Virus record (IMG/VR): IMGVR_UViG_3300005340_000078
Location: 1 to 24,257 of that record
Source of the DNA: a virus
Length of the DNA stretch: 24,257 nt
Strand: one strand, 5' to 3'
In this document: piece by piece, positions 1 to 17,850 of the stretch
How positions within the stretch are numbered: position 1 is the first letter of the stretch
Layout of the letters: each line of letters opens with the position of its first letter
Notes under the pieces: generated by a model
Databases searched by the model: none
Seen by the model: the letters and a program-made list of their open reading frames with translations, nothing else
What the model was told of the DNA's origin: nothing
Position numbers and translations under genes: made by a program

Positions 1-297
1 TACCGCTTCCGCGCTCGCCGCATCCTCAAGAGCGAGCAGCAGAACGACACGAACAACAACGCGATCAACGCGCTCAAGGAAGACAAGATCACGTTCACCA
101 CGAACGTGTATTTCACCAGCGCCACCAACTGGTGGGGCATCTCCAGCGCGAAGAACGGTCTTCGCTTCGTGTGGCGCGACAAGCCCGAGTTCCGCGAGGA
201 CAACACCAACTCGAACTACACCATCGAGTACACCTCGTACGAACGGTTCGCGGTGGGTTGGACCGATCCCCGCGGCGTCTACGGCTCGAGCATCTAA
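1..297 (+). CDS. Probable major capsid protein, C-terminal end (partial)
   Basis: The reading frame is open from base 1 to a TAA at 295-297, giving the last 98 residues of a protein that begins before the window. The fragment is polar and rich in Asn, Thr and aromatic residues (ATNWWGISSAKNG; FVWRDKPEFRED; YTSYERFAVGWTDPRGVYG). It ends in the strand-rich way seen at the C terminus of HK97-fold capsid proteins. Its position just before beta-helix-type accessory proteins and a gp4-like head-completion protein fits a major capsid gene. There is no decisive motif in this fragment, so the call rests on position and style. The Shine-Dalgarno of the next gene (AAGGAG) overlaps its stop codon, so the two genes are translationally close. 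Alternative: another head protein. Confidence 0.55.
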   Translation, partial: YRFRARRILKSEQQNDTNNNAINALKEDKITFTTNVYFTSATNWWGISSAKNGLRFVWRDKPEFREDNTNSNYTIEYTSYERFAVGWTDPRGVYGSSI

Positions 298-306
298 GGA
301 GACACC

Positions 307-1224
307 ATGGGCGTTTCCGTTTTCAACCAGTCTGGCCCCTTCGAGCTCCCCGGCATGTCGGTTGCGGCGACGGGGGGTGAGAAGTTCTACGTCGGGGCAA
401 CGATGCCCGTCGGGCAGATCGGCGAGAAGATCGTTCAGGACCGCTTTTACACGTCCGTGAACGCCGCTCTCGCCGCCTGCGTCTCCGGGCGTGGAGACAC
501 CATCATGGTGTTGCCGGGCTACACGGAGAACATCACGGCCGATGCGTGGTCGAACCTCGCAGCGACTGACGTGACGGTTCAGGGTTTGGGGCGCGGGACC
601 AACCGCCCCACGTTCACCTGGACGGTGTCTGGCTCGACGATGCTGTTCGACGTCGCGAACTTCCGCCTGATGAACTGCCGCCTGTTCCTGGCGGGCCCTC
701 ACGTCAACGGCTCGGCGCTGACTGTCACGGCTCCGATCACCATCTCCACCTCGGGCTGGGAAATCTCCGATTGCGATATCTGGTGGGGCTTCGACGCCGA
801 TCAGATCGTCACCATCGGGATTACCACCACGGCGAACGCCGACGACGGGAAGTTTAACCGCAACCGCTGCTTCGCGGAGACGGCGGCTGTTCCCACCACG
901 ACGTTCCTCCGTCTGACGGGAGCTGACCAGCTCGAGATCGACGGGACTCAGATCATCGGCCCTGGCTCGACCACGGCCATCGGCCCGGTTCAGATGTTGA
1001 CCACTGGCTGCCTGAAGCAGAAGTACACCAACTCGATCTTCCAGAGCACCCTGGCCGCTTCAACGATCGCCTTCACCTCGATCGCTGGCTGCACTGGTGT
1101 GGTGGATAAGTGCTCGTTCGCGGTCCTCGCGGCCGGCAACGGGATCACCACTGGCTCGGGGCTTCAGGTCACCAACTCGAAGACCGCCGTCGCTGCTGCA
1201 GCCGGCGCCGATACCACTGGGTAA
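307..1224 (+). CDS. Beta-helix-type virion protein, copy 1
   Basis: A 305-residue protein made of short beta-strand-like segments rich in Thr, Ala, Gly and Ile, the pattern of a right-handed parallel beta-helix. Blocks such as GRGDTIMVLPGYTENI and GLGRGTNRPTFTW resemble a family often found next to phage capsid genes and usually left as hypothetical. There is no signal peptide and no catalytic motif I can identify. AAGGAG at 296-301 supports this ATG. The next gene is a clear paralogue with the same block order, so this is half of a tandem duplication. The position after the capsid gene suggests a head decoration or head-fibre protein, but a tail-fibre role cannot be excluded. The fold call is from sequence style; the function is inference. 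Confidence 0.75.
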   Translation: MGVSVFNQSGPFELPGMSVAATGGEKFYVGATMPVGQIGEKIVQDRFYTSVNAALAACVSGRGDTIMVLPGYTENITADAWSNLAATDVTVQGLGRGTNRPTFTWTVSGSTMLFDVANFRLMNCRLFLAGPHVNGSALTVTAPITISTSGWEISDCDIWWGFDADQIVTIGITTTANADDGKFNRNRCFAETAAVPTTTFLRLTGADQLEIDGTQIIGPGSTTAIGPVQMLTTGCLKQKYTNSIFQSTLAASTIAFTSIAGCTGVVDKCSFAVLAAGNGITTGSGLQVTNSKTAVAAAAGADTTG

Positions 1225-1227
1225 CCG

Positions 1228-2163
1228 ATGGGCTGGCTAAACAACTCCGTCACACAGCCCGGGGTTACCGAGCTGGGGAACCTGTTCCTCAACGTCACTG
1301 GCGGCAAGGTCTTTTACGTCGGTACGGCGGCCATGGTCGCCAATTACACCGACGTGACCCAGGGCATCGCCAACCGGCTGTTTACGGACGTCAACACCGC
1401 TCTTGCTCAATGCGTGGCGGGCCGGGGGGACACGATCTATATCCTCCCCGGCTACACGGAGAGCATCTCGGCATCTGATGCTTGGTCGAACCTGGGTGTT
1501 GCCACCGACGTTACGATCATAGGGATGGGGCGAGGGACGAACCGTCCCACGTTCACCTGGACCGCGAACGGCGCGACCGTCCTCTTCGATACGGCCAACT
1601 TCCGCGTGTTGAACGTTCGCATGTTCATGGCGGGCCCCCAGTCTGCAGGCGCCGCGCAGACAACCGCCGCCCCCATTACCGTGTCAGCGGCGGGCTGCGA
1701 GATTTCCGGGTGTGAAATTTGGTGGGGCTTCGATGCTGACCAGATCGTCACCATCGGGATCACGACGACCGCTGCCGCCGACAACTTCACCTTCAATAGC
1801 AACTTCTGCTACGCCGAGACGGCTGCCGTACCTACGACCACCTTTCTCCGCCTGACTGGCACAGACAACCTCCGCATGGACGGAACGGTCATCATCGGGC
1901 CTGGCTCGACGACGTCGATCGGCCCGGTCCAACAGCTCACGACCGGAAGTCTCAAGGTGTGGATTCACGACTGCGTATTTCAGAGCACTCTGGCGGCCTC
2001 CACGATCGCTTTCACGGCCATCGCCGGCTGCACTGGGACGGTCGATAAGTGTTCGTTTGGCGTACTCGCGGCCGGGAACGGGTTGACCGCTGCCAGCGGT
2101 ATGCAGGTCACCAACTCTAAAACGGCGGTCGGTGCTGCAGCCGGCGCGGACACGACGGGGTAA
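1228..2163 (+). CDS. Beta-helix-type virion protein, copy 2
   Basis: A 311-residue paralogue of the gene directly upstream. Long identical blocks are visible: IWWGFDADQIVTIGITTTA, ETAAVPTTTFLRLTG, FQSTLAASTIAFT, AGCTG, VDKCSF, VLAAGNG and the terminal GAAAGADTTG-type end. The first 45 or so residues differ most, as expected if the N terminus sets the attachment site and the beta-helix is shared. The linkers after both copies read TAACCGATG, so the duplicated unit included the junction. There is no strong Shine-Dalgarno; translation is probably coupled, with the upstream stop 3 bases before the ATG. Likely a structural, surface-exposed virion component. The family is recognisable in style but its exact role is unknown. 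Confidence 0.75.
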   Translation: MGWLNNSVTQPGVTELGNLFLNVTGGKVFYVGTAAMVANYTDVTQGIANRLFTDVNTALAQCVAGRGDTIYILPGYTESISASDAWSNLGVATDVTIIGMGRGTNRPTFTWTANGATVLFDTANFRVLNVRMFMAGPQSAGAAQTTAAPITVSAAGCEISGCEIWWGFDADQIVTIGITTTAAADNFTFNSNFCYAETAAVPTTTFLRLTGTDNLRMDGTVIIGPGSTTSIGPVQQLTTGSLKVWIHDCVFQSTLAASTIAFTAIAGCTGTVDKCSFGVLAAGNGLTAASGMQVTNSKTAVGAAAGADTTG

Positions 2164-2166
2164 CCG

Positions 2167-2346
2167 ATGAGCAAGCACGAAAAGGCCGCTCCAGTTGCCC
2201 CCGTCAAGCCGCCAGAGCCGACTCCTTGCGCGGTCTGCGGTCAGAACGACGGGGAGCTCGTCGCTGTTGTCGGCCACATTCGGGCTCATGCGGAATGCGC
2301 GGCACGCAGCCCCGATGTCATTGCGAAGGTCAAGGCCCGCGCGTAA
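2167..2346 (+). CDS. Small Cys/His-motif protein, 59 residues
   Basis: A short gene that starts with ATG 3 bases after the previous stop (TAACCGATG junction) and ends at TAA 2344-2346. The first 20 residues are Lys/Pro/Ala-rich. A compact Cys/His set follows: C21-x2-C24, H37, H41 and C44, enough for one structural zinc site. There is no membrane segment. It lies inside the structural operon between beta-helix-type genes and shares their direction and codon style, so it is probably expressed with them. I do not recognise the family. It could be a small zinc-ribbon accessory protein, and its presence in the virion is not shown. Confidence 0.6.
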   Translation: MSKHEKAAPVAPVKPPEPTPCAVCGQNDGELVAVVGHIRAHAECAARSPDVIAKVKARA

Positions 2347-2364
2347 CAGAAAGGCTGAGGGCAC

Positions 2365-3180
2365 ATGGCTAGCCCGTCAATCTACAGAAACGGGCTCAAC
2401 CTCGCCGGAACGGTATTTCAAAACGGTCCGGCAAGCCTCCAGCTCGACGGCTCCACGTACTTTTCGGGAGCCATTCAGTGGCTGGATACGATCAGCGGCA
2501 ATAACGCGAATGCCGGGACGCTTCCCGAGCTTCCGGTGGCTACCCTCGCCCAGGCCGTAACCAACTCGGCGGCAAACGGGATCATCGTCATCGGGGAAGG
2601 CTCGTCGGAGTCCCTTGGCAGTTCTCAGTCGCTGGCCCTGGCGAATCTGAGCATCTTCGGGTGCGGGAGCGGGTCTAGTCGCCCTCGCTATACCTGCACC
2701 GGTACCGTAGACATGTGGGCGGTCTCGGCTGCTGGCGTTTGGATTGAGGGATTCTACTTCCCGGCATCCACCGCTGTAGCTACTGACCGGATCGGGCTTG
2801 CCGCTGCGAACGCGACTATCAAGGACTGCTATTTCGAGTGCGGGGCCTCGGACACCAACCGTGCCCTGCGAATCCACACCGGAGCGAACAGCGCGCGAGT
2901 TGAAAGCTGCTCCTTCGTCACGACGGCTAGCCGGCCGGCGATGGGGCTGGAGATTTCAGCCGCCGTCACCGATCCGGTGATCGTTGGCTGCACCTTCGAT
3001 GGCGGTTCGTACGGCTGGAGTGACTACGCGTTCAAGGTCTCGGCCGCTGCTACCCGGGTTCGGCAGTTCGGGAACACCTTCACGAACAGGGCCGACCTTG
3101 GGCACACCGTCACGGCTACCAGCTACCAGCTCTTTGGCGTCGAGGCTTCGGGGACCAGCAACGTATTGCTCACGGCGTAA
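2365..3180 (+). CDS. Third beta-helix-type virion protein
   Basis: A 271-residue protein with the same strand-turn-strand style as the two upstream paralogues but much more diverged. The segment SGNNANAGTLPELPVATLAQA resembles the start of the beta-helix in this phage family, where a short Asn/Gly-rich stretch precedes the first coil. Later coils read NATIKDCYFECG, RVESCSF and PVIVGCTFDGG, typical of pectate-lyase-like ladders. No catalytic residues can be assigned. GAGGG lies about 7 bases before the ATG. The stop at 3178-3180 directly abuts the next ATG. Probably a structural, surface-exposed protein. The N terminus (MASPSIYRNGLNLAGTVFQN) may be the particle-binding part. Confidence 0.7.
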   Translation: MASPSIYRNGLNLAGTVFQNGPASLQLDGSTYFSGAIQWLDTISGNNANAGTLPELPVATLAQAVTNSAANGIIVIGEGSSESLGSSQSLALANLSIFGCGSGSSRPRYTCTGTVDMWAVSAAGVWIEGFYFPASTAVATDRIGLAAANATIKDCYFECGASDTNRALRIHTGANSARVESCSFVTTASRPAMGLEISAAVTDPVIVGCTFDGGSYGWSDYAFKVSAAATRVRQFGNTFTNRADLGHTVTATSYQLFGVEASGTSNVLLTA

Positions 3181-4809
3181 ATGGGCGAGCTCGGCACATA
3201 CAAACCCTTCGATTTCCCCAGAATTTGCGACGTCTGCGGGAACCGCCGGCGTATCTCCTCCATGGTCAAGCTGCCTGGCGGTGTCTGGTGCTGCGACATC
3301 CACAAGGACGAACGCTCGGCGGTCGAACTGGACCGCCTGAACGCGAAGAAGAAGCCCTACAACATCATCCCCGTTCCGAACGCGAAGCCCGGGAGCCAGT
3401 ACCCGGACGTGATGGAGGCAGAGGAGGCCGTCATCATGAACTTCGTCGATCGGATGGTGGTTGCGGGGACTCGGTACGAGCAGATCATCTCCGGTCAACC
3501 CGTCCCCGTCTCCGGAGAGGGAGTGGCGGCGATGGCATGGGCGGGGCGGTACCTCTATACGGTCATAACCGACACAAGGACGCCGGCACGAGTCGTCACC
3601 CATGCAAAGGGACTGCTGCTCTCCATCGCCTCTCAGCTCAGAGCGCGTCAGCAGGGATTCGGCCTGTCCGCAAGCTCCACGCGGGCGAATGACGCCTTCT
3701 ATGGCGGGTTCTTCGACTCCGGTGGATTCGCGTGGTTTTCGGATACCGCGGCAGTGGCTGGCCTGGCGATGCTCTACGCCTATCGGGTATTCGGGACAAC
3801 GAGCTATCTCGTGTCTGCCCGAGCGGCGGCGAGCTTTCTACGCAACGTCCAGGCCATCGGGTCGAACGGGACGTTTTTCACCTCCAGTGATTCAGCCGGA
3901 ACGGCGCGGCTCAACACGGGCGGTCTCGTCAGCTACATCCTGAATAACGCGAACTTCGCTCCGAGCTACCAGATTTTCCCGTCGTGCCTCGTGACGCTCC
4001 AGTTCTGGAACGAGCTTACGACCACGGACGGAGACCAGAGCATCGGAGCGACCGCCGCTGTAACGGGCTTCGCCTCGATACCGGCGCAGCTCATGTCGAC
4101 GTCAATGACCCAGCTTCGCGCCTGCTGGACGAACGGGATCGCCGAGGTTGGCGGAACGGTCGTCAACGGTCTCTCCGCTTCGACGCCTCGGGAATTCTTC
4201 TACTCCTACCCGTCAGGCACGGGTCAGTGGTGGTTTCAGAATGGCAATGCCATCGGCGGAACTACGGTCAGCTCCCTCAACTTCGCAACCGCCCTGATGG
4301 CTCTTTACGCCTACGAAGGCGCCACGACCCAGGTGACGGAGATCGACGACTGGATGCGGGGCTTTACCAGCAACCCATCGTTCGAGACCGCCGAGAACAC
4401 CTCTGCTTACACGCTCGCTCGAGCCACCACGGGGGACTACGACGCGACGGTTTGCCCCGCGACGCTCCTCCAGGTGCGGGACGCCTCGGCCTCGTATGCT
4501 GCCAGCTCGCTCAACGGTTCCAGCGTCTACGACTGGGGTGCGTTTGGCCTTCTGTCGCCTCTCTGGTCATCCCGGCATGGTGGCACGTTCGCCAGCGCCA
4601 GGGCGAGCGCCTTCGGTAAGCGTGAACGGTTCAGCGACGGGTCTAGTACCGACGGCGATTACGTCGACTGGATTTCGCTGCTGGGCCTTTCCGGGCTCTC
4701 TTATCAGACCGCCAGCGTCAGGGCCGGGAACGCTCTCAACGACGTCGTGGGGTCTTCCATGTTCGGCGTGGCCCTGCATCAGAGGCCGGTAGCGCAGGCG
4801 GTGCCATGA
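3181..4809 (+). CDS. Large virion-operon protein: N-terminal zinc motif plus helical, toroid-like body
   Basis: A 542-residue protein whose ATG abuts the previous stop. Residues 16-41 hold C16-x2-C19, then C37-C38 and H41, a zinc-finger-like knuckle. From about residue 150 the sequence becomes paired amphipathic helices with aromatic-rich loops, for example VAGLAMLYAYRVFG followed by YLVSARAAASFLRNVQ, and later TALMALYAYEGATTQ. This alternation resembles (alpha/alpha) barrel proteins such as six-hairpin glycosidases, but I see no certain catalytic acid and do not claim an enzyme. It ends in an ATGA overlap with the gp4-like gene, so it belongs to the same structural operon. Function unknown. 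A capsid- or tail-attached polysaccharide-binding or -cleaving protein is one possibility. Confidence 0.65.
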   Translation: MGELGTYKPFDFPRICDVCGNRRRISSMVKLPGGVWCCDIHKDERSAVELDRLNAKKKPYNIIPVPNAKPGSQYPDVMEAEEAVIMNFVDRMVVAGTRYEQIISGQPVPVSGEGVAAMAWAGRYLYTVITDTRTPARVVTHAKGLLLSIASQLRARQQGFGLSASSTRANDAFYGGFFDSGGFAWFSDTAAVAGLAMLYAYRVFGTTSYLVSARAAASFLRNVQAIGSNGTFFTSSDSAGTARLNTGGLVSYILNNANFAPSYQIFPSCLVTLQFWNELTTTDGDQSIGATAAVTGFASIPAQLMSTSMTQLRACWTNGIAEVGGTVVNGLSASTPREFFYSYPSGTGQWWFQNGNAIGGTTVSSLNFATALMALYAYEGATTQVTEIDDWMRGFTSNPSFETAENTSAYTLARATTGDYDATVCPATLLQVRDASASYAASSLNGSSVYDWGAFGLLSPLWSSRHGGTFASARASAFGKRERFSDGSSTDGDYVDWISLLGLSGLSYQTASVRAGNALNDVVGSSMFGVALHQRPVAQAVP

Positions 4810-5486
4810 GTACGTCTTTCGACTTGAATCGGACTGACATCATCCGGACGGCGGCGCAGCTCTGCGGGGTTGTTGCGGCGGGAGACGATCCGGACACCGC
4901 TCTCTTGTCGATGGGGAGCGACTTCCTCAACGTGATCATGAAGGAGATGCAGAGTTTCGGAATCATGCTCCGGAAGCTGGAGAGGACGACGATCCCGCTC
5001 ATCTCCGGTACCGCCTCGTACACCCTCGACGCTTCCACTCTCGACGTCGACACGGACACCTCATACGTCTCCGACGGCAACGGAACCGACCTGCGGCTGA
5101 TGATGATCCCCCGGGGCCAATACATGGCCCTCACCGACAAGACAACCCAGGGCCAACCCACCCAGATGTACGTGGAGAAGACCGCGAACATCACGGTTTC
5201 TCTCTACCCGGTTCCCGACGGCAACTGGCCGACGATGACGATTCCCAGGGTCGTAGTCATCGACGACATGACCACGGCGAGTTCTGTGACGGGACTTCAG
5301 GCGAAGTACCTCCGGGCAATCATGCTCGGAGTTGCTCACATGATCGCCTATGCGCACTCCCTCAACGACAAGGCTCGAATGCTCAAGGCCGACTACGACC
5401 AGGCGCTTGGCATCGCGAAGAACGACGACACGGAGCGCGGCGCGACCCGGCTGGTCGCCAACTACGGACTGAGGATGCGGCGATGA
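4806..5486 (+). CDS. Head-completion adaptor, P22 gp4-like tail accessory factor
   Basis: A 226-residue protein, longer than P22 gp4 (166 residues). The N-terminal part matches the family layout: an initial helix (DIIRTAAQLCGVVAAGDDPD), a second helix (GSDFLNVIMKEMQSFG), then a beta part beginning with TIPLISGTASYTLDAST, the usual 'TL.aGt.sYtL' feature. A proline-containing beta domain follows (IPRGQYMAL..KTTQGQPTQMYVEK). It ends with helices that include MLGVAHMIAYAHSLND and a basic tail. In P22 this protein binds beneath the portal and begins closure of the DNA-filled head. The gene overlaps its neighbours at both ends by ATGA-type junctions, consistent with tight late-operon translation. 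Family call fairly confident; gene naming left open. Confidence 0.8.
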   Translation: MSTSFDLNRTDIIRTAAQLCGVVAAGDDPDTALLSMGSDFLNVIMKEMQSFGIMLRKLERTTIPLISGTASYTLDASTLDVDTDTSYVSDGNGTDLRLMMIPRGQYMALTDKTTQGQPTQMYVEKTANITVSLYPVPDGNWPTMTIPRVVVIDDMTTASSVTGLQAKYLRAIMLGVAHMIAYAHSLNDKARMLKADYDQALGIAKNDDTERGATRLVANYGLRMRR

Positions 5487-5953
5487 TCGGACTGCTCGAA
5501 CAGGTGCTTGCGGAGCTTGCCCGGAGACGCGAGATGCAGCCGCAGCCCCGCGACTGGCGCGAAGTAACGCCTGACTTCGTTGGCCCTCCTCAGCGCGGCC
5601 TCCCGCCCACTTCATACCGTGACCCGATGCAGGCGGGACCGGCGCCGCCTACGTCGGGCGGCTGGCAAGTCGCGCCCGACAACGTCGCCAACGACTTCCG
5701 CACGAGCGCCGCGCTCGGTGGCGGTTCCATGCCCGGACCTTCGGGGGGGACGTTTCGGAAAGAGTCACCCTACGACCGGGTGATGGAAGGTGCGGGCTCG
5801 ATCGCAGATCGGCCCGACTACGCCGACTACCAGAAGTCGAAGACGACGTTCGAATACCTGATGGGGCCGGACGGTAAACTCTATCGGCGCCAAGGCGGCC
5901 CATCACAAGCCCAGACCAATCAGCTCGCCATGATGCTCCAGAGGGGCCGATGA
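5483..5953 (+). CDS. Hypothetical protein, Pro/Gly-rich, 156 residues
   Basis: It starts at an ATGA overlap with the gp4-like gene and ends at an ATGA overlap with the next. The first 18 residues form an amphipathic helix (IGLLEQVLAELARRREMQ). A long low-complexity stretch rich in Pro, Gly and Arg follows to about residue 95, and then a more ordered segment with several Tyr residues (DRPDYADYQKSKTTFEYLMGPDG). There are no membrane segments, cysteines or recognisable domain. Such disordered proteins in podovirus structural operons can be minor virion or assembly proteins, but this is inferred from position only. I do not recognise the family. Confidence 0.65.
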   Translation: MIGLLEQVLAELARRREMQPQPRDWREVTPDFVGPPQRGLPPTSYRDPMQAGPAPPTSGGWQVAPDNVANDFRTSAALGGGSMPGPSGGTFRKESPYDRVMEGAGSIADRPDYADYQKSKTTFEYLMGPDGKLYRRQGGPSQAQTNQLAMMLQRGR

Positions 5954-6147
5954 AGAAGGCGGAGCGCAAGATTGCCCATCTGTGGTGGGCAAAGAAGCCG
6001 GGAAAACTCGGATGGGAGCAGTTGAGCAACTTCGCGTGGCTTCACATCGACGATCTGAGCAAGGAAGAACTCAACGACATCATCTTCATGATTACCGAGG
6101 CGCGCGCGAACGGCTGCCCGCCGAAAGTGTTCGAGGTGGTTAAGTGA
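5950..6147 (+). CDS. Small basic/aromatic hypothetical protein, 65 residues
   Basis: A 65-residue protein beginning at an ATGA overlap and ending at a GTGA overlap with the tailspike gene. It opens with a basic, Trp-rich segment (KKAERKIAHLWWAKKPGKLGW) and continues with a predicted helix around DLSKEELNDIIFMITEARANG. There is no signal peptide, membrane helix or metal motif. Its place immediately upstream of the tailspike, in the same tightly coupled operon, could mean a small tail or chaperone-like component. I do not recognise the family and no function is claimed. That it is coding is supported by both tight overlaps and by composition like its neighbours. Confidence 0.6.
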   Translation: MKKAERKIAHLWWAKKPGKLGWEQLSNFAWLHIDDLSKEELNDIIFMITEARANGCPPKVFEVVK

Positions 6148-7649
6148 GCAACTTCGCTGCAATCCTCGCCCCTCTCGCCATCTCGGGCTCTCGCAAGAGC
6201 GACGGGACCGCGAATGACTCAGGGAAGGTCTACGCCTATCTCCCCGGTACGCTGACGACGACAAGCATCTACGCCGATGCGTCGGCGGAGACGGTCGTCA
6301 CCCAGCCGATCACCCTGGACAGCGCCGGGAGGCTTCCACGCGCGGACTTCCCCGACGGCGTTTTCATCGCTCGCCCCGTTCGCCTTCTGATCCAGGACTC
6401 CAGCGGCTCCACGGTGAGTGATTCCGTCTACGTCCCCAGCACCGCGGGAGCTACGGGCGTCGACAATGACGGATTCAGCGATTCGACGCTGGATGATGTC
6501 CTCGACGATGCCTTTACGAGCTTCGGCGGGGTGGATTGGAAGTACAAGGAGAGCGGGGGAGCGACCTCGCGGACGGTCAAGGCGAAGTTCGCGGAGCGTG
6601 GCATTGCCCCTGAGGATTTCGGCGCGGTTGGCGATGGCGTCGCCATAGATACGACGGCGGTACAAGCGGCCTTCAACCGCGCCAAGGTGCTGTCCTGTCC
6701 GGTCATCGTTGCGGGCGGTAAAAACTACAAATGCGATCAGGCGATTACCCTGACGAGTGCGACGGGCGTCAGCATTCTCGGCGCTGGCAGCGGGGCGTCT
6801 ACTTTCACGTTCACGAACGGGTCTGCGGATGGTTTTACCTTCACGTCATGCACGACCCTTCAGATCAGCGGCATCAAGATTGCCCACTCGTCATCCAGCA
6901 CCGGGAACGCCATCACGCTCAGCAGTTGCACGTCGCCGTCATTCACAGATGTCGTGCACAACGGCGGCAGCAGTTCGGGGTTTCGGATTGTCATATCGCT
7001 GACGAGCAGCACGTCAGCCAAGATCATCCTGTGCACGCTAACGGGAGAGGCGTCGAATGCCGCAGCCCGCGGCCTCTATGCCAGCAGCAGCGGCGCAATC
7101 ACCATGGTCGGCGGCAGCGCCGGGGCTGCGGCGGGGTATGCATTCGAAGCAGCAGGGAACACCGCTAACTGCACTTTCCTGGGGACTACGCTGGGGACCG
7201 CGCGGTTCGCCGCTGGACTGTCAGGTTCAGAGTTCTACTTCGTCGGCTGCCCAGGACTTGGCCTGTCGGTTGCCACGGCGACCAACTTCCCCGTCATCGA
7301 GCAGTGGCAGTCGCCGCCGTATTCATCGAGCGTCAGCGGGGCGACAGGCACGGCTGTTACTCCGAGCCTCGTCGGGGGAAAGGTCGTTCAGGTCACCGCA
7401 ACGGGCGGAGTCGGAACCCTGACCGTCAATAACCCTGCTCTCCTGCCGACCACGGCCGGGCTGGGCCGGCAATACTGGGAGTTCTGGTTCATCAACAGCA
7501 CTGCCGGTGCCTGCACATGGGCCCTTGATACCAATTACCGCTTGGCAGCGTCCATCCCGACGACGTTCGCCCACACAGTCATCATCAGGTTCGAGTGGGA
7601 CGGCACGTATCTGCGCGAAGTGGCGCGCACTGACACGGTGACGGCGTGA
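6144..7649 (+). CDS. Tailspike / tail fibre with pectate-lyase-like beta-helix
   Basis: A 501-residue protein with a GTG start overlapping the upstream TGA. Residues 1-100 look like a particle-attachment domain common in phage tail fibres: a small beta domain with GKVYAYLPGTLTTTSIYAD, then PITLDSAGRLP, then DGVFIARPVRLLIQDSSG. At residues 158-165 DFGAVGDG, followed by DTTAVQAAFNRA, is the hallmark entry to a pectate-lyase-type right-handed beta-helix. The long Ser/Thr/Gly-rich coils to about residue 400 fit that fold. The C terminus (about 400-501) is a separate beta-rich part with an aromatic YWEFWFINST segment, perhaps for trimerisation. Expected role: binding and possibly cleaving the host surface polysaccharide. 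The active-site acids cannot be assigned by eye. Confidence 0.8.
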   Translation: MSNFAAILAPLAISGSRKSDGTANDSGKVYAYLPGTLTTTSIYADASAETVVTQPITLDSAGRLPRADFPDGVFIARPVRLLIQDSSGSTVSDSVYVPSTAGATGVDNDGFSDSTLDDVLDDAFTSFGGVDWKYKESGGATSRTVKAKFAERGIAPEDFGAVGDGVAIDTTAVQAAFNRAKVLSCPVIVAGGKNYKCDQAITLTSATGVSILGAGSGASTFTFTNGSADGFTFTSCTTLQISGIKIAHSSSSTGNAITLSSCTSPSFTDVVHNGGSSSGFRIVISLTSSTSAKIILCTLTGEASNAAARGLYASSSGAITMVGGSAGAAAGYAFEAAGNTANCTFLGTTLGTARFAAGLSGSEFYFVGCPGLGLSVATATNFPVIEQWQSPPYSSSVSGATGTAVTPSLVGGKVVQVTATGGVGTLTVNNPALLPTTAGLGRQYWEFWFINSTAGACTWALDTNYRLAASIPTTFAHTVIIRFEWDGTYLREVARTDTVTA

Positions 7650-7651
7650 GC

Positions 7652-8011
7652 CTACTGCTGCTTCGTCGCGATGAACGCGATTGCGTCGCCGTCGATGAAA
7701 ATCTGCCCGCTAATGACGTCCTCGTTGTCGGCCGGCGCTCGAACCTGACTGAAAGAACCGGAGGTAGTTTCGAGGTTCAGGAAGATCGTCCCGGGCGTCG
7801 TGTAGTCGGCGTGCGCCGCGCCCCCGATCAACTCGCAGCGCCAATAGCCCTCCGTGTCCTGAAGGTGCATGTAGCCCGTGCATTGGGCCGGATTGAGGGC
7901 GCCTATGCGCACGTCGTAGTTGGCGCCGGTCTCGCCGCATCCGACGAGTCCAACGAGCAGAAGCCACAGCAACGCGCCGAGTGCTATCGGGGACCAGTTG
8001 ATGTCTCGCAT
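7652..8011 (-). CDS. Minus-strand lipoprotein inside the structural operon (superinfection-exclusion candidate)
   Basis: A 119-residue protein read against all of its neighbours. Residues 1-9 form a short polar n-region. Residues 10-24 are hydrophobic (ALGALLWLLLVGLVG), then Cys25 completes a textbook lipobox L22-V23-G24-C25. Residue +2 is Gly, not Asp, so outer-membrane sorting would be expected in a diderm host. The mature part is about 95 residues, beta-rich, with two more cysteines (C44, C59) that could pair in the periplasm. Third codon positions are strongly G/C in this frame, which supports it over the opposite-strand frame. The gene sits 2 bases from the tailspike stop, tail to tail. 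Phage lipoproteins of this size (T5 Llp, phi80 Cor) block receptors for other phages. That role is inference; a lysogenic-conversion 'moron' or a lysis lipoprotein are alternatives. The start has no clear Shine-Dalgarno. Confidence 0.8.
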   Translation of the reverse strand: MRDINWSPIALGALLWLLLVGLVGCGETGANYDVRIGALNPAQCTGYMHLQDTEGYWRCELIGGAAHADYTTPGTIFLNLETTSGSFSQVRAPADNEDVISGQIFIDGDAIAFIATKQQ

Positions 8012-8063
8012 GAGCTAAGTGTGTGGCCATGTCGGCACGCTTCGCAAGCTGCGCAGGTGATCA

Positions 8064-9494
8064 GTGGGTGAGCCGGCCACCATCCCGTTCGCCCAGGGCC
8101 AGGCCTCGGGCCTCGACACCCTGTCGGGGATGGCTCCCAAGCTGTGGAACTGGCTTCCAGATGCGGCGGGAGCCCTCCGCCAGCGCCCCGGTATTCGCGC
8201 GTGGTCCGATTTTACCGGCGTCACGGCCTCGGGCTCTCCCGTCATCGGGATGTTCGTCTGGCGAACCTCGGTGATTTTCGTCACCGCCGCTCGGACCATC
8301 TACGCCCTCATCGCTCCCGGCTCTGTCTTGAACCTCGGCACGCTGGGAGGAACGGGGCGGCCGATCTTCACCTACGACCAGCAGCGGGTGGTCATTACGG
8401 GCGGTGGAGTTCCGGTGAAGTGGGAAGGGGTGGGAGCGGTTTCCGATCTCGCCCCGGGGATGACCTCAATCAGCGGCGGGGCGCTCAACCTGACTCATAT
8501 CGCCTACTCGGCGCAGAAATTCATTGGGAACCTCAATGACAATTCTGGCGTTCTCCAATGGTCGCAGGAGGGCCCGGGGAGTCATGCGACCTGGCCGATC
8601 GTTGGCCCGTATTACATGGAGGCGGAGGCTGCGCCCGATCCGGTCATTGCCGTTTGGGCGAACACCAATGAGGTCTTCGCCTTCGGCACTGAGACCACTC
8701 AAGTGCTCTCCCCCGATCCGGCCACTCGTTTCACGGTGTCCGCTTCGATCGCCTACGGCCTCGCGGCGCCCTACTCGGTCATCGCCACCGAGGACGGGAA
8801 CCTCTACTGGCTCGAGGCGAACCGCAATTTTATCGAGTCGAACGGCCGCGGCGCAGACCTGATCTCCAGCCCCACCATGGCGGCCGATCTCAAGAGCCTC
8901 GAGACCGTCAGTGATTGCTGGGGGGCAAACATCATGATCGGCTCCCACGACCTCCTCGTTTGGGCCTTCCCAACGGAGGGGCGGACATTCTGGTACGACC
9001 GCACCACAAAGAAGTGGGGCGAATGGAATACGCTGGACTCAAATGGTGAGTCCACTGGCTGGATTGCTCAAAGTTACTTCTACTGGGCTGACCGTAATCT
9101 CCACCTCGTTGGGCTGTCGGACGGTACAATTGCGGAACTGAGCTTCAATGCACCCGACGACAATGGAACAGCGATTAGAGCCCTGTCCGAGACGGGGTTT
9201 CAGGACCGGGGGACATTCGCCCGGAAGCTCTGTCAGCGGGTACAGCTCCAATTCCGTCGGGGAGGCACCGTGCCGCCCGCTACAGCCCCGATCTGCGAAC
9301 TCCGGTACCGGGATGACCTCGGGAATTGGAAGGCCGCAAAACGCTTCTCAATGGGCGCCGCGCAGTATCAGCCAGTCGTTGACGCCTGGGCATTGGGGAT
9401 GTACCGCCAAAGGTCCTGGCAACTCAATTGGACGGGCGGGAGTGATTTCTTGCTTGCCGGGGCTACCGAGTCGTTCGAAACGCAGGAGGTTTGA
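8064..9494 (+). CDS. Packaged-DNA stabilisation / tail plug protein, P22 gp10-like
   Basis: A 476-residue protein, close to the 472 of P22 gp10. The pattern fits the family: an N-terminal strand region with LPDAAGALRQRPGI, then repeated beta blades (GRPIFTYDQQRVVITGGG; QKFIGNLNDNSG). The diagnostic stretch follows: AAPDPVIAVWANTNEVFAFG, then TTQVLSPDP, then SVIATEDGNLYWLEANRNF. In P22 this protein joins gp4 and gp26 to close the portal. GTG 8064 is chosen because an in-frame stop lies at 8058-8060, so no earlier start exists; AGGTGA is close upstream. The next in-frame ATG, at 8130, would remove the first 22 residues. The gene is separated from the rest of the late operon by the minus-strand lipoprotein gene. 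Confidence 0.8.
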   Translation: MGEPATIPFAQGQASGLDTLSGMAPKLWNWLPDAAGALRQRPGIRAWSDFTGVTASGSPVIGMFVWRTSVIFVTAARTIYALIAPGSVLNLGTLGGTGRPIFTYDQQRVVITGGGVPVKWEGVGAVSDLAPGMTSISGGALNLTHIAYSAQKFIGNLNDNSGVLQWSQEGPGSHATWPIVGPYYMEAEAAPDPVIAVWANTNEVFAFGTETTQVLSPDPATRFTVSASIAYGLAAPYSVIATEDGNLYWLEANRNFIESNGRGADLISSPTMAADLKSLETVSDCWGANIMIGSHDLLVWAFPTEGRTFWYDRTTKKWGEWNTLDSNGESTGWIAQSYFYWADRNLHLVGLSDGTIAELSFNAPDDNGTAIRALSETGFQDRGTFARKLCQRVQLQFRRGGTVPPATAPICELRYRDDLGNWKAAKRFSMGAAQYQPVVDAWALGMYRQRSWQLNWTGGSDFLLAGATESFETQEV

Positions 9495-10575: not shown

Positions 10576-12266
10576 TGCCTGATCCGCGTTACACCATAGA
10601 CTGGGAACCCCCCGACATCTCGGCGGGCGCTGGACTCTTGCTCGGAGTCCTGGAGAAGAACCGCGCCCACGACTTGGCCCAGATGAACGCCGAAACCCAA
10701 CGGCAATACGCTGAGAACACCAACCGCCGAGAGAGCGCCCAAGAGAAGCGCAATCAACAGACCTACGAGCAGGGACAGGCAGACCGCCGACAGAAGGCGA
10801 TCGAGTCAGCCAACGAGCTTCGCCGTCAAGGCCGGCACTCGGAAGCGGACATGCTGCTCAAGCTCCACGGCGTCGTGGCTGCCCCGATCATGGGCGAGGC
10901 GAAGACCACGGCCCCCGAGGTGGTCACCCCCATGTCGGCGGCCTCTCGTCTCACGTCGGCGGAAGTCCCCCCAATGGAGGACACGTCGTTCAAGTACGTG
11001 AGCCCGATGGCGGCAGCGGCTAACACGGTCGCCCCTCCCGAGCATCACGGCGTGGGCGTTACGGTCCCCGAAGAACCTCCCGCAATGCCCCCCGTCGCTG
11101 CCAGTGAGGTCACGCCGGCCGAAGATCACAGCGCGGCCAGCGACCTCCTGCCGTACACGATCCCGGGAGAAACCCAACCCGGAGCACCTACCGGGGCCTA
11201 CCGCTATACGGGACCGAATGGGGAAGACCTGGGGAGGTTCGACCCGGCGGAGGAGAAGGCATTCCGCGAAAAGAGAGCGGCGCATGTAACCGATGCGCTG
11301 GGGCCGCTCGGCGAAAAGGTCGTGAAGATAGCCGATCTCCTGGCTGCGAACGAAATCAGTGACAAGGAAGCCGGGGCTCTGTTTGCGATGGTCCGATCGG
11401 CCGAGAGCGAGACTGAACGCGAGAAGGCACGGAACGCCGACCGCGAGGACAAGCAGCGGTTCGAAGAGTTGATGAAGAAGCTCTACAGCAACGAGCCGAT
11501 CACGATCGCAGACCGCAATCGCTGGGAGGCAATGCGTGCTCATGCCCGCGCGGCGTCTTCGGGGGCCGTCACCGCTCCCCCGGCAGCAATGGACGTTCTG
11601 AGCCGGTATGCGATCGAGAACCCCGGGGACCAGCCCGGTTTGCACCGCCTCGCCGGCACCCTCGGTATCGAGAACCCGGAGAAGGCGGTTGCCGCCGTCC
11701 TCAATCAAACGAAGTCGACCGAGTCTCAGAGCAAGGACGCAAAGCAGGCAGCTATCGGTCTCCGGGCCATCGATGCGATCGGCTCAGCCGGCTATACGCC
11801 CAGCCGCGAAGATATCCAGAAGTGGCTCAACAACCAGCGCCAAGTTTACCAAGCCCAGAGGGCCGGCGAGGGCGGCGGCATCGGCGGATTGGTCGGCGGA
11901 TACGTTGCCGGGAAGGCCCAGGAGCACGGCGTATTGGCGCAGAGCGAGGTCGAAGGTTTGCCGCCGAAGGCCGCCAACTACTTCGCGAACGTCCGTCGGT
12001 TCATGGAGACAATCGGCCGCGCGCAGTCAGGCGCCGCCATCTCCCCAACTGAATGGCAGAACTTTTTCAATCAGTACGGACCGAATTCCCCGGGTGGGCT
12101 TGATGCCGCGCGCCAATATATGAACGATCAACTGAGGGCGTCCGGGGTGGCAGGCAGAACACTCGCGCCGCCTACTACGCCGAAGACAACCGCGCCTGTG
12201 AGGTCAGTTCGTATGCCTGACGGGACGGTCCAGAGCTTCGATGCCAACGGAAAGAGGGTCGAGTGA
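10575..12266 (+). CDS. Probable ejection / internal virion protein, 563 residues
   Basis: It starts at a TGATG overlap with the preceding gene. Residues 17-23 are a Gly/Ala/Leu patch (AGAGLLLG). Residues 28-85 form a long polar helix rich in Gln, Glu, Arg and Asn, probably a coiled coil. Residues 100-200 are Pro/Ala/Glu-rich and disordered. Residues 215-330 are again helical and highly charged. The C-terminal half has helices around AANYFANVRRFMETIGRAQSGA and ends DGTVQSFDANGKRVE. No enzyme motif, including any lytic transglycosylase signature, is visible. Order and size recall the gp7-gp20-gp16 ejection set of P22-like phages. The role is inferred from position and composition, not from a matched domain. 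Confidence 0.6.
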   Translation: MPDPRYTIDWEPPDISAGAGLLLGVLEKNRAHDLAQMNAETQRQYAENTNRRESAQEKRNQQTYEQGQADRRQKAIESANELRRQGRHSEADMLLKLHGVVAAPIMGEAKTTAPEVVTPMSAASRLTSAEVPPMEDTSFKYVSPMAAAANTVAPPEHHGVGVTVPEEPPAMPPVAASEVTPAEDHSAASDLLPYTIPGETQPGAPTGAYRYTGPNGEDLGRFDPAEEKAFREKRAAHVTDALGPLGEKVVKIADLLAANEISDKEAGALFAMVRSAESETEREKARNADREDKQRFEELMKKLYSNEPITIADRNRWEAMRAHARAASSGAVTAPPAAMDVLSRYAIENPGDQPGLHRLAGTLGIENPEKAVAAVLNQTKSTESQSKDAKQAAIGLRAIDAIGSAGYTPSREDIQKWLNNQRQVYQAQRAGEGGGIGGLVGGYVAGKAQEHGVLAQSEVEGLPPKAANYFANVRRFMETIGRAQSGAAISPTEWQNFFNQYGPNSPGGLDAARQYMNDQLRASGVAGRTLAPPTTPKTTAPVRSVRMPDGTVQSFDANGKRVE

Positions 12267-14891: not shown

Positions 14892-15608
14892 ATGTTCACG
14901 ATCTCGCCGGGAATAAGGCTTTGCCCCGTCGGGACCTCGCTCACGGCCGGGGGCTTGCCCAACGGCCAACCACGAGGTTGGTGGTGCGACGTCTTTGGAG
15001 TCGGCGGTAGGCTGTCAACGGGAATGGCGGCATTTACGCCAGTCACCGCGCTAGGTGTTCAGACCAGCGGATTGGCTCGCGGTTCTACCAGCCCCCCCAT
15101 CGCCGTTCACCGGCCCATCATTGCCGAGATTGGTGGCGCCAAGCTCGCCGACAACATCGCCTCCTGGTCAACGCTGGTGACGGCCTATGAGCCCTTCGAC
15201 GCTCTGATCGTTGAAGGAAATATCAACGACGTCATAGCCGCGACGAATCAGACCACTTTCACGAATCAGGTAAACCAGATTCTCGACCTCGGGGCAGGCT
15301 ACGGCCAAATCTTCTGGATGGCTGCGATGCTGGGAGACACCGGGAACGGTGAAAACGACACGCTGTTTGGCAACGCGTTTAACACCTCAATCGACACCTA
15401 CAACACCATCATTCAAACGCAGATGGCATTGCGGTCCGCGAAATACACGTTCTGCAACGTGCGGGCTTCCCTGAAGAGCTGGGAGACGGCCAACAACACC
15501 GCACACGTAGGACAGGGATTGCTCACTATCGACGGTATCCACCTGACCGAATACGGCCTTGGGATCGTCCGAAAGGCTGCGGCGTCCAGCGTTCAGTGGG
15601 GGGCGTAA
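14892..15608 (+). CDS. SGNH/GDSL-type hydrolase, probable virion-associated esterase
   Basis: A 238-residue protein with the SGNH blocks in order. Block I is GTSLTAG at residues 14-20, with Ser16 as nucleophile. Block III lies around residues 109-113 (GNIND), with Asn112 as the likely oxyanion residue. Block V is DGIHLTEYG, with Asp214 and His217 as the catalytic pair. The block I glycine-threonine-serine replaces the usual Gly-Asp-Ser, a known variant. There is no signal peptide, fitting a virion protein rather than a secreted enzyme. Such enzymes remove acetyl groups from capsular or O-antigen polysaccharide. It lies downstream of two beta-rich genes and upstream of the lysis cassette. The hydrolase call is strong, the virion location is inference. 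Confidence 0.8.
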   Translation: MFTISPGIRLCPVGTSLTAGGLPNGQPRGWWCDVFGVGGRLSTGMAAFTPVTALGVQTSGLARGSTSPPIAVHRPIIAEIGGAKLADNIASWSTLVTAYEPFDALIVEGNINDVIAATNQTTFTNQVNQILDLGAGYGQIFWMAAMLGDTGNGENDTLFGNAFNTSIDTYNTIIQTQMALRSAKYTFCNVRASLKSWETANNTAHVGQGLLTIDGIHLTEYGLGIVRKAAASSVQWGA

Positions 15609-15609
15609 G

Positions 15610-15804
15610 GTGACCTGGCACCACGTAGCCGCTCTGATGATTGCCGCAGCGATGGTCATGGCCTGCGGCATCTCGGAGAAGTGCAACGGAGCAAGTTTCA
15701 ACGGCGTTCTACAATTGGCCACTGTCATCGTTGCTGGTGCTTTTGGCCATGCCGGGGCCGGGATGCGAAAGAAGCAAGACGAGGGAAAGGGCGATGGCAA
15801 ATGA
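15610..15804 (+). CDS. Small membrane protein in the lysis region, 64 residues
   Basis: GTG 15610 is chosen because it lies just after the esterase stop; an in-frame start 51 bases upstream would overlap the esterase gene. Two hydrophobic segments are visible, about residues 6-19 (VAALMIAAAMVMAC) and 31-49 (NGVLQLATVIVAGAFGHAG). A charged Lys/Asp/Glu tail follows. The size, two membrane segments and charged C terminus are holin-like. The first segment followed by Cys19 might instead be read as a weak lipoprotein signal, but the lipobox (V-M-A-C) is poor. Neighbours are a soluble small protein, a second membrane protein and the endolysin. Holin or antiholin is a plausible role. Confidence 0.6.
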   Translation: MTWHHVAALMIAAAMVMACGISEKCNGASFNGVLQLATVIVAGAFGHAGAGMRKKQDEGKGDGK

Positions 15805-16018
15805 AGCCGGCACTGACCTCGATCTCGAGCGTGCAATCTGGAGAGAGTGCGCAGGAGCCTGTGACGCCCTGGCGGGAGCAATTCGCAGAGCAGAGGAAGT
15901 CGTGCCGGGACTTCCTGGCCCTTCTAGACAGCTTGCTAGAGACCAGCTCACCGGGCTCGTCAGACGAACGTGTCTCTTATTAATGTCCGTAGGTTTCCCC
16001 AACGAAGAAAGGAAATGA
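15794..16018 (+). CDS. Small hypothetical protein in the lysis cassette, 74 residues
   Basis: ATG 15794 overlaps the end of the preceding gene by 11 bases and has a purine-rich leader (GAGGGAAAGG) upstream. A longer in-frame form starting at 15641 would lie almost wholly over the membrane-protein gene and is not favoured. The protein is a mainly helical acidic/basic mix (DLDLERAIWRECAGACDALA; GAIRRAEEVVPGL; QLTGLVRRTCLLLMSVGF). The C terminus is mildly hydrophobic but not a clear membrane helix. I do not recognise it. A spanin-like or lysis-timing role is conceivable from position, but no lipobox or spanin coiled coil is visible. Confidence 0.5.
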   Translation: MANEAGTDLDLERAIWRECAGACDALAGAIRRAEEVVPGLPGPSRQLARDQLTGLVRRTCLLLMSVGFPNEERK

Positions 16019-16022
16019 CCCC

Positions 16023-16253
16023 ATGCCCAAGTGGCTCTCACTGAACAATGTTCTCAAGGTCGTCGTCGGTGCCGTCGGTGTCGCCGGCGCCATCGTCACG
16101 GCGCCTGCTGGCGTCCTTCCGGCCGTGGTCGTCGCCGTCGCAATGAAGGTCGTCACCTACGGCGGCATTCTCGTCGGCATGGGAGCGGCGAAGTACCTCC
16201 CGGGCCATGGGGCGAACGCGCCTGAGAAGCCGATGGAGATGCCCGCGAAGTGA
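16023..16253 (+). CDS. Holin candidate, 76 residues
   Basis: A 76-residue protein with AAAGGA 9 bases before the ATG. After a short basic start (MPKWLSLNN), two hydrophobic segments follow: about residues 10-27 (VLKVVVGAVGVAGAIVTA) and 31-52 (VLPAVVVAVAMKVVTYGGILVG). The tail is hydrophilic and Pro/Glu-rich. Two close membrane helices with a short loop, immediately upstream of the endolysin with a GTGA overlap, is the usual holin position and layout (class II style). Holins oligomerise in the inner membrane and release the endolysin. There is no conserved holin motif to confirm, so the other small membrane protein at 15610-15804 remains an alternative. Confidence 0.65.
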   Translation: MPKWLSLNNVLKVVVGAVGVAGAIVTAPAGVLPAVVVAVAMKVVTYGGILVGMGAAKYLPGHGANAPEKPMEMPAK

Positions 16254-16780
16254 GCGAGCCCCTGTTCGTCCCTGGCGATCTGGTCGACGGGGCAATCACC
16301 GTCGCCGTTACCCAGCTCGGGCAACGGGAGACGGGCCCCAACACAGGCCCGATGGTGGACAAGTACCTTGAGTCAGTGGGGCTCGGGCCGGGGCACTCCT
16401 GGTGCGCGGCTGGGATACACTGGAGTTTCCAAGAGGCCGCGAACGCGCTCGGAATGCTCAACCCCTGTCCGAAGACGGGCGGTGTCCTGCGCCTCTGGGA
16501 GCTCGCCCCCGACGTGGCGAAGGTACGCGCGCCCGTGCGAGGCGCAGTTTTCATCATGGATCACGGTAAAGGCCACGGGCATACCGGGATAGTCGAGACG
16601 GTCAACGGCGGCGGCCTGGTGGAAACCATCGAGTTCAACACGAACCGTGGCGGCTCACGAGAGGGCGACTGCGTTTGGCGCCATATCTGGCGACCCGAAG
16701 ACGGGGCCCGAGGGCTGCTCGTCGGCTACATCGACTTCGGCTTAGTGCCCCTCGTTTCGAAGAAGACCGGCGTAGCCTAG
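16250..16780 (+). CDS. CHAP-type endolysin (cell-wall amidase/peptidase)
   Basis: A 176-residue protein with a GTG start overlapping the holin-candidate stop. The sequence fits the single-domain CHAP-like endolysin family: ETGPNTGPMVDKYLESVG, then the catalytic Cys52 in SWCAAGIHW, then PKTGGVLRLW, then VFIMDHGKGHGHTGIV with His111, then TIEFNTNRGGSREGD supplying the third polar residue (Glu128 or Asn130). Such enzymes cut peptidoglycan peptide or amide bonds to release progeny. No signal peptide is visible, so export depends on a holin. The 3' end overlaps the convergent HNH gene by 4 bases, leaving no room for a separate terminator between them. Confidence 0.85.
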   Translation: MSEPLFVPGDLVDGAITVAVTQLGQRETGPNTGPMVDKYLESVGLGPGHSWCAAGIHWSFQEAANALGMLNPCPKTGGVLRLWELAPDVAKVRAPVRGAVFIMDHGKGHGHTGIVETVNGGGLVETIEFNTNRGGSREGDCVWRHIWRPEDGARGLLVGYIDFGLVPLVSKKTGVA

Positions 16781-17214
16781 GACGCGCGCTTCGCAGCGGC
16801 ATATTGCCGCATCCGAAGGCGACTGCACGTCCGACAAACGCGCGCCAGCGCGCCGTTCCGGCCCTTCCGCCATCCGGTATTGTCGACGTCGAATGGGTGG
16901 CCGTGTTTGCACGTCGGGCGACCAGCTAGCAGCGCTGGCGGCGATGAGCTTCGACGGTTGTTTTCCCGCTGCGTGACCGGTTCAAGATGGTGCGGGTTCA
17001 CGCACAGCGGATTCTTACAAAGGTGGTCCAACTCTAGGCCGTCGGGGATCGGTCCAACCAGAAGCTTCCACGTCGCGCGGTACGCTGGCTCCTGATTCCC
17101 CAGCGGGTAGCCGTTCGACATGACGTAGCCCTTCCAGGCCCAGCATTCATCGGGCCTACCGACGGATTCTCGCAGGACCGCCAGGAAGCGCCTATTTTCC
17201 GGTTCGTCGCTCAT
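16777..17214 (-). CDS. HNH homing-type endonuclease
   Basis: A 145-residue minus-strand protein with a classic phage HNH layout. An N-terminal segment with ECWAWKGY leads to the core LELDHLCKNPLCVNPHHLEPV. Here D63-H64 begins the ββα-metal motif, C66 and C71 with later residues bind structural zinc, H75-H76 lie in the helix, and TQRENNRRS follows. A second zinc cluster (C102, H104/H106, C127, C130) closes the protein. Such enzymes nick or cut DNA and often spread by homing; they are common as single genes wedged between phage operons. The ATG has AGGTGG directly upstream, which is close for a Shine-Dalgarno. The gene lies 45 bases downstream of another minus-strand gene, so both may share a transcript. 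Confidence 0.85.
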   Translation of the reverse strand: MSDEPENRRFLAVLRESVGRPDECWAWKGYVMSNGYPLGNQEPAYRATWKLLVGPIPDGLELDHLCKNPLCVNPHHLEPVTQRENNRRSSSPPALLAGRPTCKHGHPFDVDNTGWRKGRNGALARVCRTCSRLRMRQYAAAKRAS

Positions 17215-17259
17215 CCACCTGTCGCTGGTGCCGCTCGTCAGCCGGAAGCCGGCGGCGAC

Positions 17260-17850
17260 CTAGGCGTCTGGGAGCAAGTCCCAATCGTCGATCAATGGCC
17301 GCCAGGGATCGGACCTGGGAAGGCGATCAAGGCGGGATGAGGCGCGCGCTTCCAGTTCACCGACGCGACGAATCGCGGCGGTGAGGCCAGCGCGCTCCAG
17401 GGCCAAATCTGATTCCAACTCCGCGATTCTCGCGTTAGCGGAAGCGAGCTGGGATTGGAGGTCGGGACCGGGAGCAACGAAATGGCCGTGGCTGTCGTCT
17501 GTGCAACCCGGAACGCAGAAGCGCGTTCGCGACACGAAGAAAAACCCCGGATCAAGCGCCAGGCATGACGGGCACGCCCAGCCGGGGACATTCTTGATCT
17601 CATCCCACGTTCGTTTATGCGTTGGGCACTCCCTCCGCACCGCCCCCGGTGCCTGTGGTCCGCCGTCGGAGATGAGCGTGGCGCATGCGATGGCCTCGAC
17701 GCTTACATGGTTGCCGAAGTGGCTGGGCCATCCACTGCTGGCAGCGTGAATCATCCACGTTCGTGTTCCCGGCTCATAGCGGAGCAGCGTTGCCTCGTCA
17801 CCGGTCGCGAATCGGTATCGCTGACCTGGTCGAACTTCTGGCTTATCCAT
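17260..17850 (-). CDS. Cys-rich coiled-coil hypothetical protein on minus strand, 196 residues
   Basis: A strong Shine-Dalgarno (AAGGAG, read from 17865 to 17860) lies 9 bases before the ATG. Residues 1-60 look like a small beta domain (PGQRYRFATGDEATLLRYEP). Residues 75-116 hold C75, H78, C93, C96, C112 and C116, suggesting one or two zinc sites. Residues 130-173 are a heptad-like helix (ARIAELESDLALERAGLTAA) predicted to be a coiled coil. The tail reads SDPWRPLIDDWDLLPDA. I do not recognise the whole protein; the coiled-coil region resembles the Glu/Arg-rich proteins near 23381-24257. It is divergent from the HTH gene and upstream of the HNH gene, so it may be an accessory or regulatory gene. 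Function unknown. Confidence 0.65.
   Translation of the reverse strand: MDKPEVRPGQRYRFATGDEATLLRYEPGTRTWMIHAASSGWPSHFGNHVSVEAIACATLISDGGPQAPGAVRRECPTHKRTWDEIKNVPGWACPSCLALDPGFFFVSRTRFCVPGCTDDSHGHFVAPGPDLQSQLASANARIAELESDLALERAGLTAAIRRVGELEARASSRLDRLPRSDPWRPLIDDWDLLPDA

What the first reader, a model, noticed from the sequence alone, without database searches (positions are those of the whole stretch)
7652..8011. Antisense lipoprotein gene wedged between tailspike and tail-plug genes
Every neighbour is on the + strand, yet this gene runs opposite, tail to tail 2 bases from the tailspike stop. It has a textbook lipobox (L22-V23-G24-C25), Gly at +2, and two extra cysteines. Known phage lipoproteins such as T5 Llp and phi80 Cor block the receptor after infection. 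A leftward gene inside a late operon could be expressed independently, early or in the lysogen. The protein itself resembles no family I know, so this may be an undescribed exclusion or immunity-type lipoprotein.
Basis: partly seen in the sequence, partly recalled or inferred. Interest (0 to 1): 0.62.

Follow-up and report, generated by a model that had tools for sequence, protein, structure and literature searches.

The report
Antisense lipoprotein slot beside phage tailspike
A soil phage and four relatives each carry, next to the tailspike gene and on the opposite DNA strand, a small gene for a fat-anchored protein whose sequence differs completely from phage to phage; it most likely shields the infected cell from further infection, but that has not been tested.

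Summary
The gene is real. The minus strand is the coding one: GC3 is 0.82 and codon score +0.38 bits, against −0.06 for the competing + ORF. The lipobox is as described. The 3' neighbour is a head-closure (Hc3, P22 gp10-like) gene, not a tail plug.

Of 14 related phage contigs, five carry an antisense lipoprotein at exactly this junction, 1–2 bases from the spike stop. The other nine have spike and Hc3 abutting or overlapping. The five proteins show no significant similarity to each other, even between sister phages with 76% identical Hc3. All have a signal peptide, lipobox, acidic mature part and extra cysteines. The receptor part of the spike is hypervariable too.

All five inserts, and none of the nine others, carry a conserved 22-bp block with a promoter-like element (TTGCG–N17/18–NACAYT in the window), 32–34 bp upstream of the first antisense start. 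Independent, perhaps leaderless, expression is therefore likely.

Best reading: a hypervariable superinfection-exclusion lipoprotein paired with the spike, working like T5 Llp, Cor or Rtp45 but not a detectable member of that family. The function is inferred. An outer-membrane spanin and another surface moron remain as rivals.

The parts
7652..8011 (-). small lipoprotein gene, 119 aa; signal peptide residues 1-24, mature part 95 aa, acidic (pI 4.2), Cys at 25, 44 and 59
   Evidence: ORF; codon-position GC and codon score; antisense lipoprotein ORF in the same slot in four relatives
7937..7948 (-). lipobox L22-V23-G24-C25 (signal peptidase II motif)
   Evidence: sequence; regex scan; equivalent VIGC, VVGC, LVGC, LLGC in the relatives
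8018..8047 (-). promoter-like element TTGCGA-N18-CACACT, ending 6 bases before the ATG (leaderless mRNA suggested; no Shine-Dalgarno)
   Evidence: only exact match of the degenerate pattern in the window, 0.24 expected
8043..8064 (.). 22-bp conserved block found once in each insert carrier and in no non-carrier, 32-34 bp from the first antisense start codon
   Evidence: found in each held-out genome by a leave-one-out matrix
6144..7649 (+). tailspike; conserved N-terminal part, hypervariable beta-helix part next to the lipoprotein gene
   Evidence: PHROG tail spike matches; identity profile along the protein
8064..9494 (+). head closure Hc3 / P22 gp10-like packaged-DNA stabilization protein (right border of the slot)
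   Evidence: PHROG 578, 3e-32; tblastn to phage stabilization proteins

Best explanation
This is a superinfection-exclusion lipoprotein encoded in a hypervariable slot that is paired with the tailspike. Shown by sequence: a real minus-strand gene with a signal peptide and lipobox, in a slot that holds an antisense lipoprotein in five related phages, with a shared promoter-like 5' element. Inferred: the gene is transcribed leftward from its own promoter, early or in the lysogen, before late rightward transcription runs over it. The product is lipidated and sent to the outer membrane; +2 is never Asp in the five, which would mean outer membrane under the E. coli sorting rule. There it binds the protein or complex that this phage's spike or tail needs and stops further adsorption or DNA entry, also on debris after lysis. 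Because spike receptor parts differ between phages, the cognate lipoprotein is replaced or diverges with them.
For: Same junction, same antisense orientation and 1-2 base spacing in five phages, absent from nine. All five are signal-peptide lipoproteins with acidic mature parts (pI 4.1-4.5) and 3-9 Cys, yet without significant pairwise similarity. In sister phages L037/L039 adaptor and Hc3 are 70 and 76% identical and the spike N-part 66-88%, while the spike receptor part drops to 18-52% and the lipoproteins are unrelated, so the variable stretch is spike C-part plus lipoprotein. A conserved promoter-like element lies at fixed distance in carriers only. T5 has the same logic: llp lies next to the receptor-binding gene oad on the opposite strand. 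Llp blocks FhuA and contains a disulphide (PMC9586334). Rtp45 blocks LptDE (PMC12685063). Drexlerviridae are thought to encode receptor-binding and cognate exclusion proteins together (PMC8594841).
Against: No homologue with a known function. The five match neither Cor/Llp (phrog_1119 finds T5 Llp at 1e-19 but none of ours) nor any defence model. Host, receptor and lifestyle are unknown. A beta-helical spike suggests a polysaccharide primary receptor, which a periplasm-facing lipoprotein could not mask, so a secondary protein receptor or entry step must be assumed. Nine relatives do without it. T5 llp/oad are divergent, whereas here spike and lipoprotein genes are convergent.
Confidence: 0.5

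Rival explanations
1. It is an outer-membrane spanin subunit (o-spanin) that helps disrupt the outer membrane at lysis.
For: Small phage lipoproteins are typically o-spanins (general knowledge). In L003 a gene with an N-terminal membrane segment and a charged, partly coiled-coil-like part lies directly upstream in the same antisense unit (11185-11574), which is the Rz/Rz1 gene order. No spanin was recognised beside the window's endolysin.
Against: Four of five carriers have the lipoprotein alone. No Rz (PF03245) match in ten related contigs and no other good i-spanin candidate in the carriers. L025 has the homologous holin/endolysin cluster without spanin and without the insert, so the insert does not complement a lysis gene. 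The slot is 7.5 kb from the lysis genes and antisense to the late genes. Cys-rich and hypervariable sequence is unusual for o-spanins.
Confidence: 0.15
2. It is a lysogenic-conversion or moron lipoprotein that changes the host surface for another benefit (stress, other phages, predators, competition), not exclusion tied to this phage's own receptor.
For: An antisense gene with its own promoter-like element inside a late operon is the classical moron layout. Carriage is patchy (2 changes on the Hc3 tree). Two of the relatives have an integrase. Contents differ wholly between phages.
Against: No integrase in the carriers examined for it (window, L003, L004), though these are fragments. Always lipoproteins, always directly beside the spike: a general moron slot would be expected to hold other gene types.
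Confidence: 0.25
3. The minus ORF is a shadow of a + strand gene (7646-8071) or is non-coding.
For: A 141-aa + ORF overlaps it.
Against: Codon-position GC and codon score favour minus. The + ORF has no match above chance. Four relatives have antisense lipoproteins at the same site.
Confidence: 0.02

Closest known systems
T5 Llp (and T1/phi80 Cor, PHROG 1119)
   Same: Small lipoprotein with extra Cys, encoded next to the receptor-binding tail gene on the opposite strand; independent promoter annotated
   Different: No sequence match to PHROG 1119. Mature part here is 95 aa (64-139 in the relatives) against about 62 in T5 Llp. Convergent with the spike rather than divergent from oad. Receptor unknown
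Rtp45 and Oekolampad exclusion lipoproteins (Drexlerviridae)
   Same: Allelic receptor-binding gene plus cognate exclusion lipoprotein as a joint variable locus (PMC8594841, PMC12685063)
   Different: Siphophages with protein receptors; there the two exclusion lipoproteins retain 35% identity, while the five compared here show no significant similarity
Rz/Rz1-type spanins
   Same: Small lipoprotein; L003 has a membrane-anchored gene just upstream
   Different: No partner in four carriers, no family match, far from the lysis genes and antisense to late genes
Pfam PF24052 Phage_lipoprotein
   Same: L039's lipoprotein matches weakly (E 0.00086, 19.7 bits; cut-off 27)
   Different: Below cut-off, and no match for the other four

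Membership tests
Cor/Llp superinfection-exclusion lipoproteins (PHROG 1119) | profile match to phrog_1119 | tested here: not met
   T5 Llp control 1.1e-19; none of the five lipoproteins matches at E<=1
Cor/Llp superinfection-exclusion lipoproteins (PHROG 1119) | signal peptide with lipobox, small mature protein, extra cysteines | tested here: met
   (sequence motif only, lipidation not tested)
Cor/Llp superinfection-exclusion lipoproteins (PHROG 1119) | gene adjacent to the receptor-binding tail gene, own transcription unit on the other strand | tested here: met
   adjacency; T5 arrangement; promoter-like element (transcription not tested)
Cor/Llp superinfection-exclusion lipoproteins (PHROG 1119) | blocks a receptor and excludes the same phage | not testable with these tools
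   needs host and plaque assays
Two-component spanin (Rz/Rz1 type) | i-spanin partner gene embedded, overlapping or adjacent | tested here: not met
   absent in window, L004, L037, L039; a possible partner only in L003; PF03245 absent
Two-component spanin (Rz/Rz1 type) | required for the last step of lysis | not testable with these tools
   needs knock-out and lysis assay
Phage_lipoprotein PF24052 | Pfam match above gathering cut-off | tested here: not met
   window lipoprotein no match; L039 19.7 bits against cut-off 27

The most novel reading that the evidence does not exclude
A dedicated hypervariable 'exclusion slot': a fixed antisense cassette (conserved promoter-like element, exchangeable lipoprotein ORF, spike 3' end) in which spike receptor part and cognate receptor-blocking lipoprotein are exchanged as one recombination module, with lipoproteins of unrelated sequence or fold swapped in.
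Probability: 0.35. Interest if true: 0.7.

Novelty: new variant of a known kind. Interest (0 to 1): 0.55.

Why it matters
If true, receptor-specific exclusion by lipoproteins, known so far from coliphages such as T5, T1 and Rtp, is also found in uncultured soil short-tailed-type phages. The coupling of receptor-binding domain and exclusion protein would then be a general modular rule that can be used to find exclusion genes, and through them receptors, by position rather than by sequence. The five carriers give a ready test set.

Tried and rejected
Homology searches with the lipoprotein (viral contigs, phage records, Pfam, PHROGs, NCBIfam, PADLOC, PDB) found nothing significant. Searches with the other carriers' lipoproteins found only themselves in viral contigs (L003 and L004 only) and nothing significant in phages. 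Single-sequence AlphaFold models were poor (pLDDT 52 and 42); the strand-rich tendency is noted but no fold search was run. Bacterial genome scans for prophage relatives found none, so no host was assigned. A plain sigma-70 consensus scan found no promoter; the element came only from comparing carriers. The spanin reading was tested by PF03245 and by a membrane-segment scan. The + ORF reading was rejected.

Full report
What is there. The window is a 24,257-base IMG/VR virus record, G+C 63%. Gene order around the finding is SU10-type adaptor (4806-5486; Pfam PF24175), two small genes, tailspike (6144-7649; PHROG tail spike matches), the antisense gene (7652-8011), and head closure Hc3 / P22 gp10-like (8064-9494; PHROG 578, 3e-32; phage stabilization proteins). 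The antisense ORF is as described: 119 aa, lipobox L22-V23-G24-C25, Gly +2, extra Cys 44 and 59, stop 2 bases from the spike stop.

Is it a gene? Both strands are open here. Codon-position GC for the minus frame (0.59/0.46/0.82) is that of the other genes. With a codon table made from 22 window genes the minus frame scores +0.379 bits per codon (spike +0.34, Hc3 +0.29) and the + ORF 7646-8071 scores −0.055. The + ORF has no match above chance. The minus strand is coding.

Relatives. The lipoprotein itself finds nothing. Neighbouring genes found 13 further contigs with the same local order. In nine of them (L025, L026, L029-L034, L042) the spike stop abuts or overlaps the Hc3 start. In four (L003, L004, L037, L039), and in the window, an antisense ORF sits in between, its stop 2, 2, 2, 1 and 2 bases from the spike stop. 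Each begins with a signal peptide and lipobox: VIGC (L003), VVGC (L004), LVGC (L037), LLGC (L039), LVGC (window). The +2 residue is G, A, G, S, G. The mature parts are acidic (pI 4.1-4.5) with 3-9 cysteines. L003's signal peptide is very short (12 residues). None of the ten pairwise comparisons of mature parts is significant against shuffles (lowest p 0.08, window against L004).

A hypervariable module. In the sister phages L037 and L039, adaptor and Hc3 are 70 and 76% identical and the first 200 residues of the spike 66-88%. The spike's later part falls to 18-52% and the lipoproteins are unrelated, of different length and cysteine number; Hc3 is conserved again after the slot. Window and L003 show the same trend. 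On the Hc3 tree, window, L003, L037 and L039 form one supported clade (99/98), L004 branches earlier, and the non-carriers L025, L026, L029 and L042 form another clade. Two changes suffice: one gain and one loss, or two gains.

A conserved 5' element. The stretch between the first antisense start and Hc3 is alignable in all five carriers. A 22-bp block has mean pairwise identity 0.78, against at most 0.55 in 200 shuffles and about 0.42 in the following Hc3 coding DNA. Leave-one-out matrices find it as the top site in each held-out carrier; the best score in any non-carrier is 17.4 against 26-32 in carriers. It starts 32 bases from the first antisense ATG in window, L037, L039 and L003 (L003's first antisense ATG is at 11574; one search used 11571 and printed 35), and 34 in L004. 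In L004 the distance to the Hc3 start has changed but that to the lipoprotein has not, so the block seems to belong to the antisense unit. With the adjacent bases it reads as a promoter: T(T/G/A)GCG-N17/18-NAC(A/G)(C/T)T, ending 6-9 bases before the ATG. The four promoter-proximal lipoprotein starts have no clear Shine-Dalgarno sequence. The L003 lipoprotein, second in its unit, has a good one (GGGGGAGGTGAC-ACATG). This is what leaderless transcription of the first gene would look like (inference). The plain sigma-70 scan had found nothing, so the element rests on comparison alone. The degenerate pattern occurs once in the window, with 0.24 expected, but the pattern was drawn from these sites.

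Mechanism. The best-supported reading is a superinfection-exclusion lipoprotein coupled to the spike. The model is T5: llp lies beside the receptor-binding gene oad on the opposite strand, and Llp binds FhuA from the periplasmic side and closes the pb5 site (PMC9586334). Rtp45 does the like on LptDE (PMC12685063), and in Drexlerviridae receptor-binding genes are thought to be encoded with cognate exclusion proteins (PMC8594841). Shown here: gene, lipobox, slot, hypervariability shared with the spike, conserved upstream element. Inferred: transcription, lipidation, outer-membrane location, target and exclusion. Family membership fails: T5 Llp matches PHROG 1119 at 1e-19 and none of the five does. 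It may work like Llp, but is not shown to be one.

Rivals. The spanin reading is prompted by L003, where a membrane-anchored ORF (11185-11574) precedes the lipoprotein. The other four carriers lack a partner, PF03245 is absent from ten contigs, and L025 has the homologous holin/endolysin cluster with neither spanin nor insert. A general moron reading remains open. Two distant relatives carry an integrase, none of the three carriers tested does, and all are fragments.

Limits. Five carriers, no host, no transcript, poor structure models (pLDDT 52 and 42), and no access to the large metagenome collection. The insert's loss or gain count rests on one gene tree; the adaptor tree is less resolved.

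Noticed in passing
window 3189-3321; L002 3189-3321: L002 (another IMG/VR contig) is identical to window 1-6179 except for 43 base differences all inside this 133-base stretch at the 5' end of gene 3181-4809, as if a patch had been exchanged; L002 ends 36 bases into the tailspike gene.
   Followed up: partly
L003 11185-11574 (-): Extra antisense ORF (129 aa) upstream of L003's lipoprotein: N-terminal membrane segment, charged coiled-coil-like stretch; no family match. It takes the promoter-proximal place in that carrier.
   Followed up: partly
window 307-1224, 1228-2163, 2365-3180: 307-1224 and 1228-2163 are tandem paralogues (67% identical) and 2365-3180 appears more distantly related (all three cross-match in relatives): consecutive probable beta-helix virion proteins ahead of the adaptor, conserved in order in the relatives.
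   Followed up: no
window 16777-17850 (-): HNH endonuclease (PHROG 826, 7e-43) and a 196-aa unknown on the minus strand directly after the CHAP endolysin, with weaker codon bias than the other genes.
   Followed up: no
window 15559-16780: Lysis cluster with two small membrane proteins and a CHAP endolysin but no recognisable spanin; conserved in L025, which lacks one too.
   Followed up: partly
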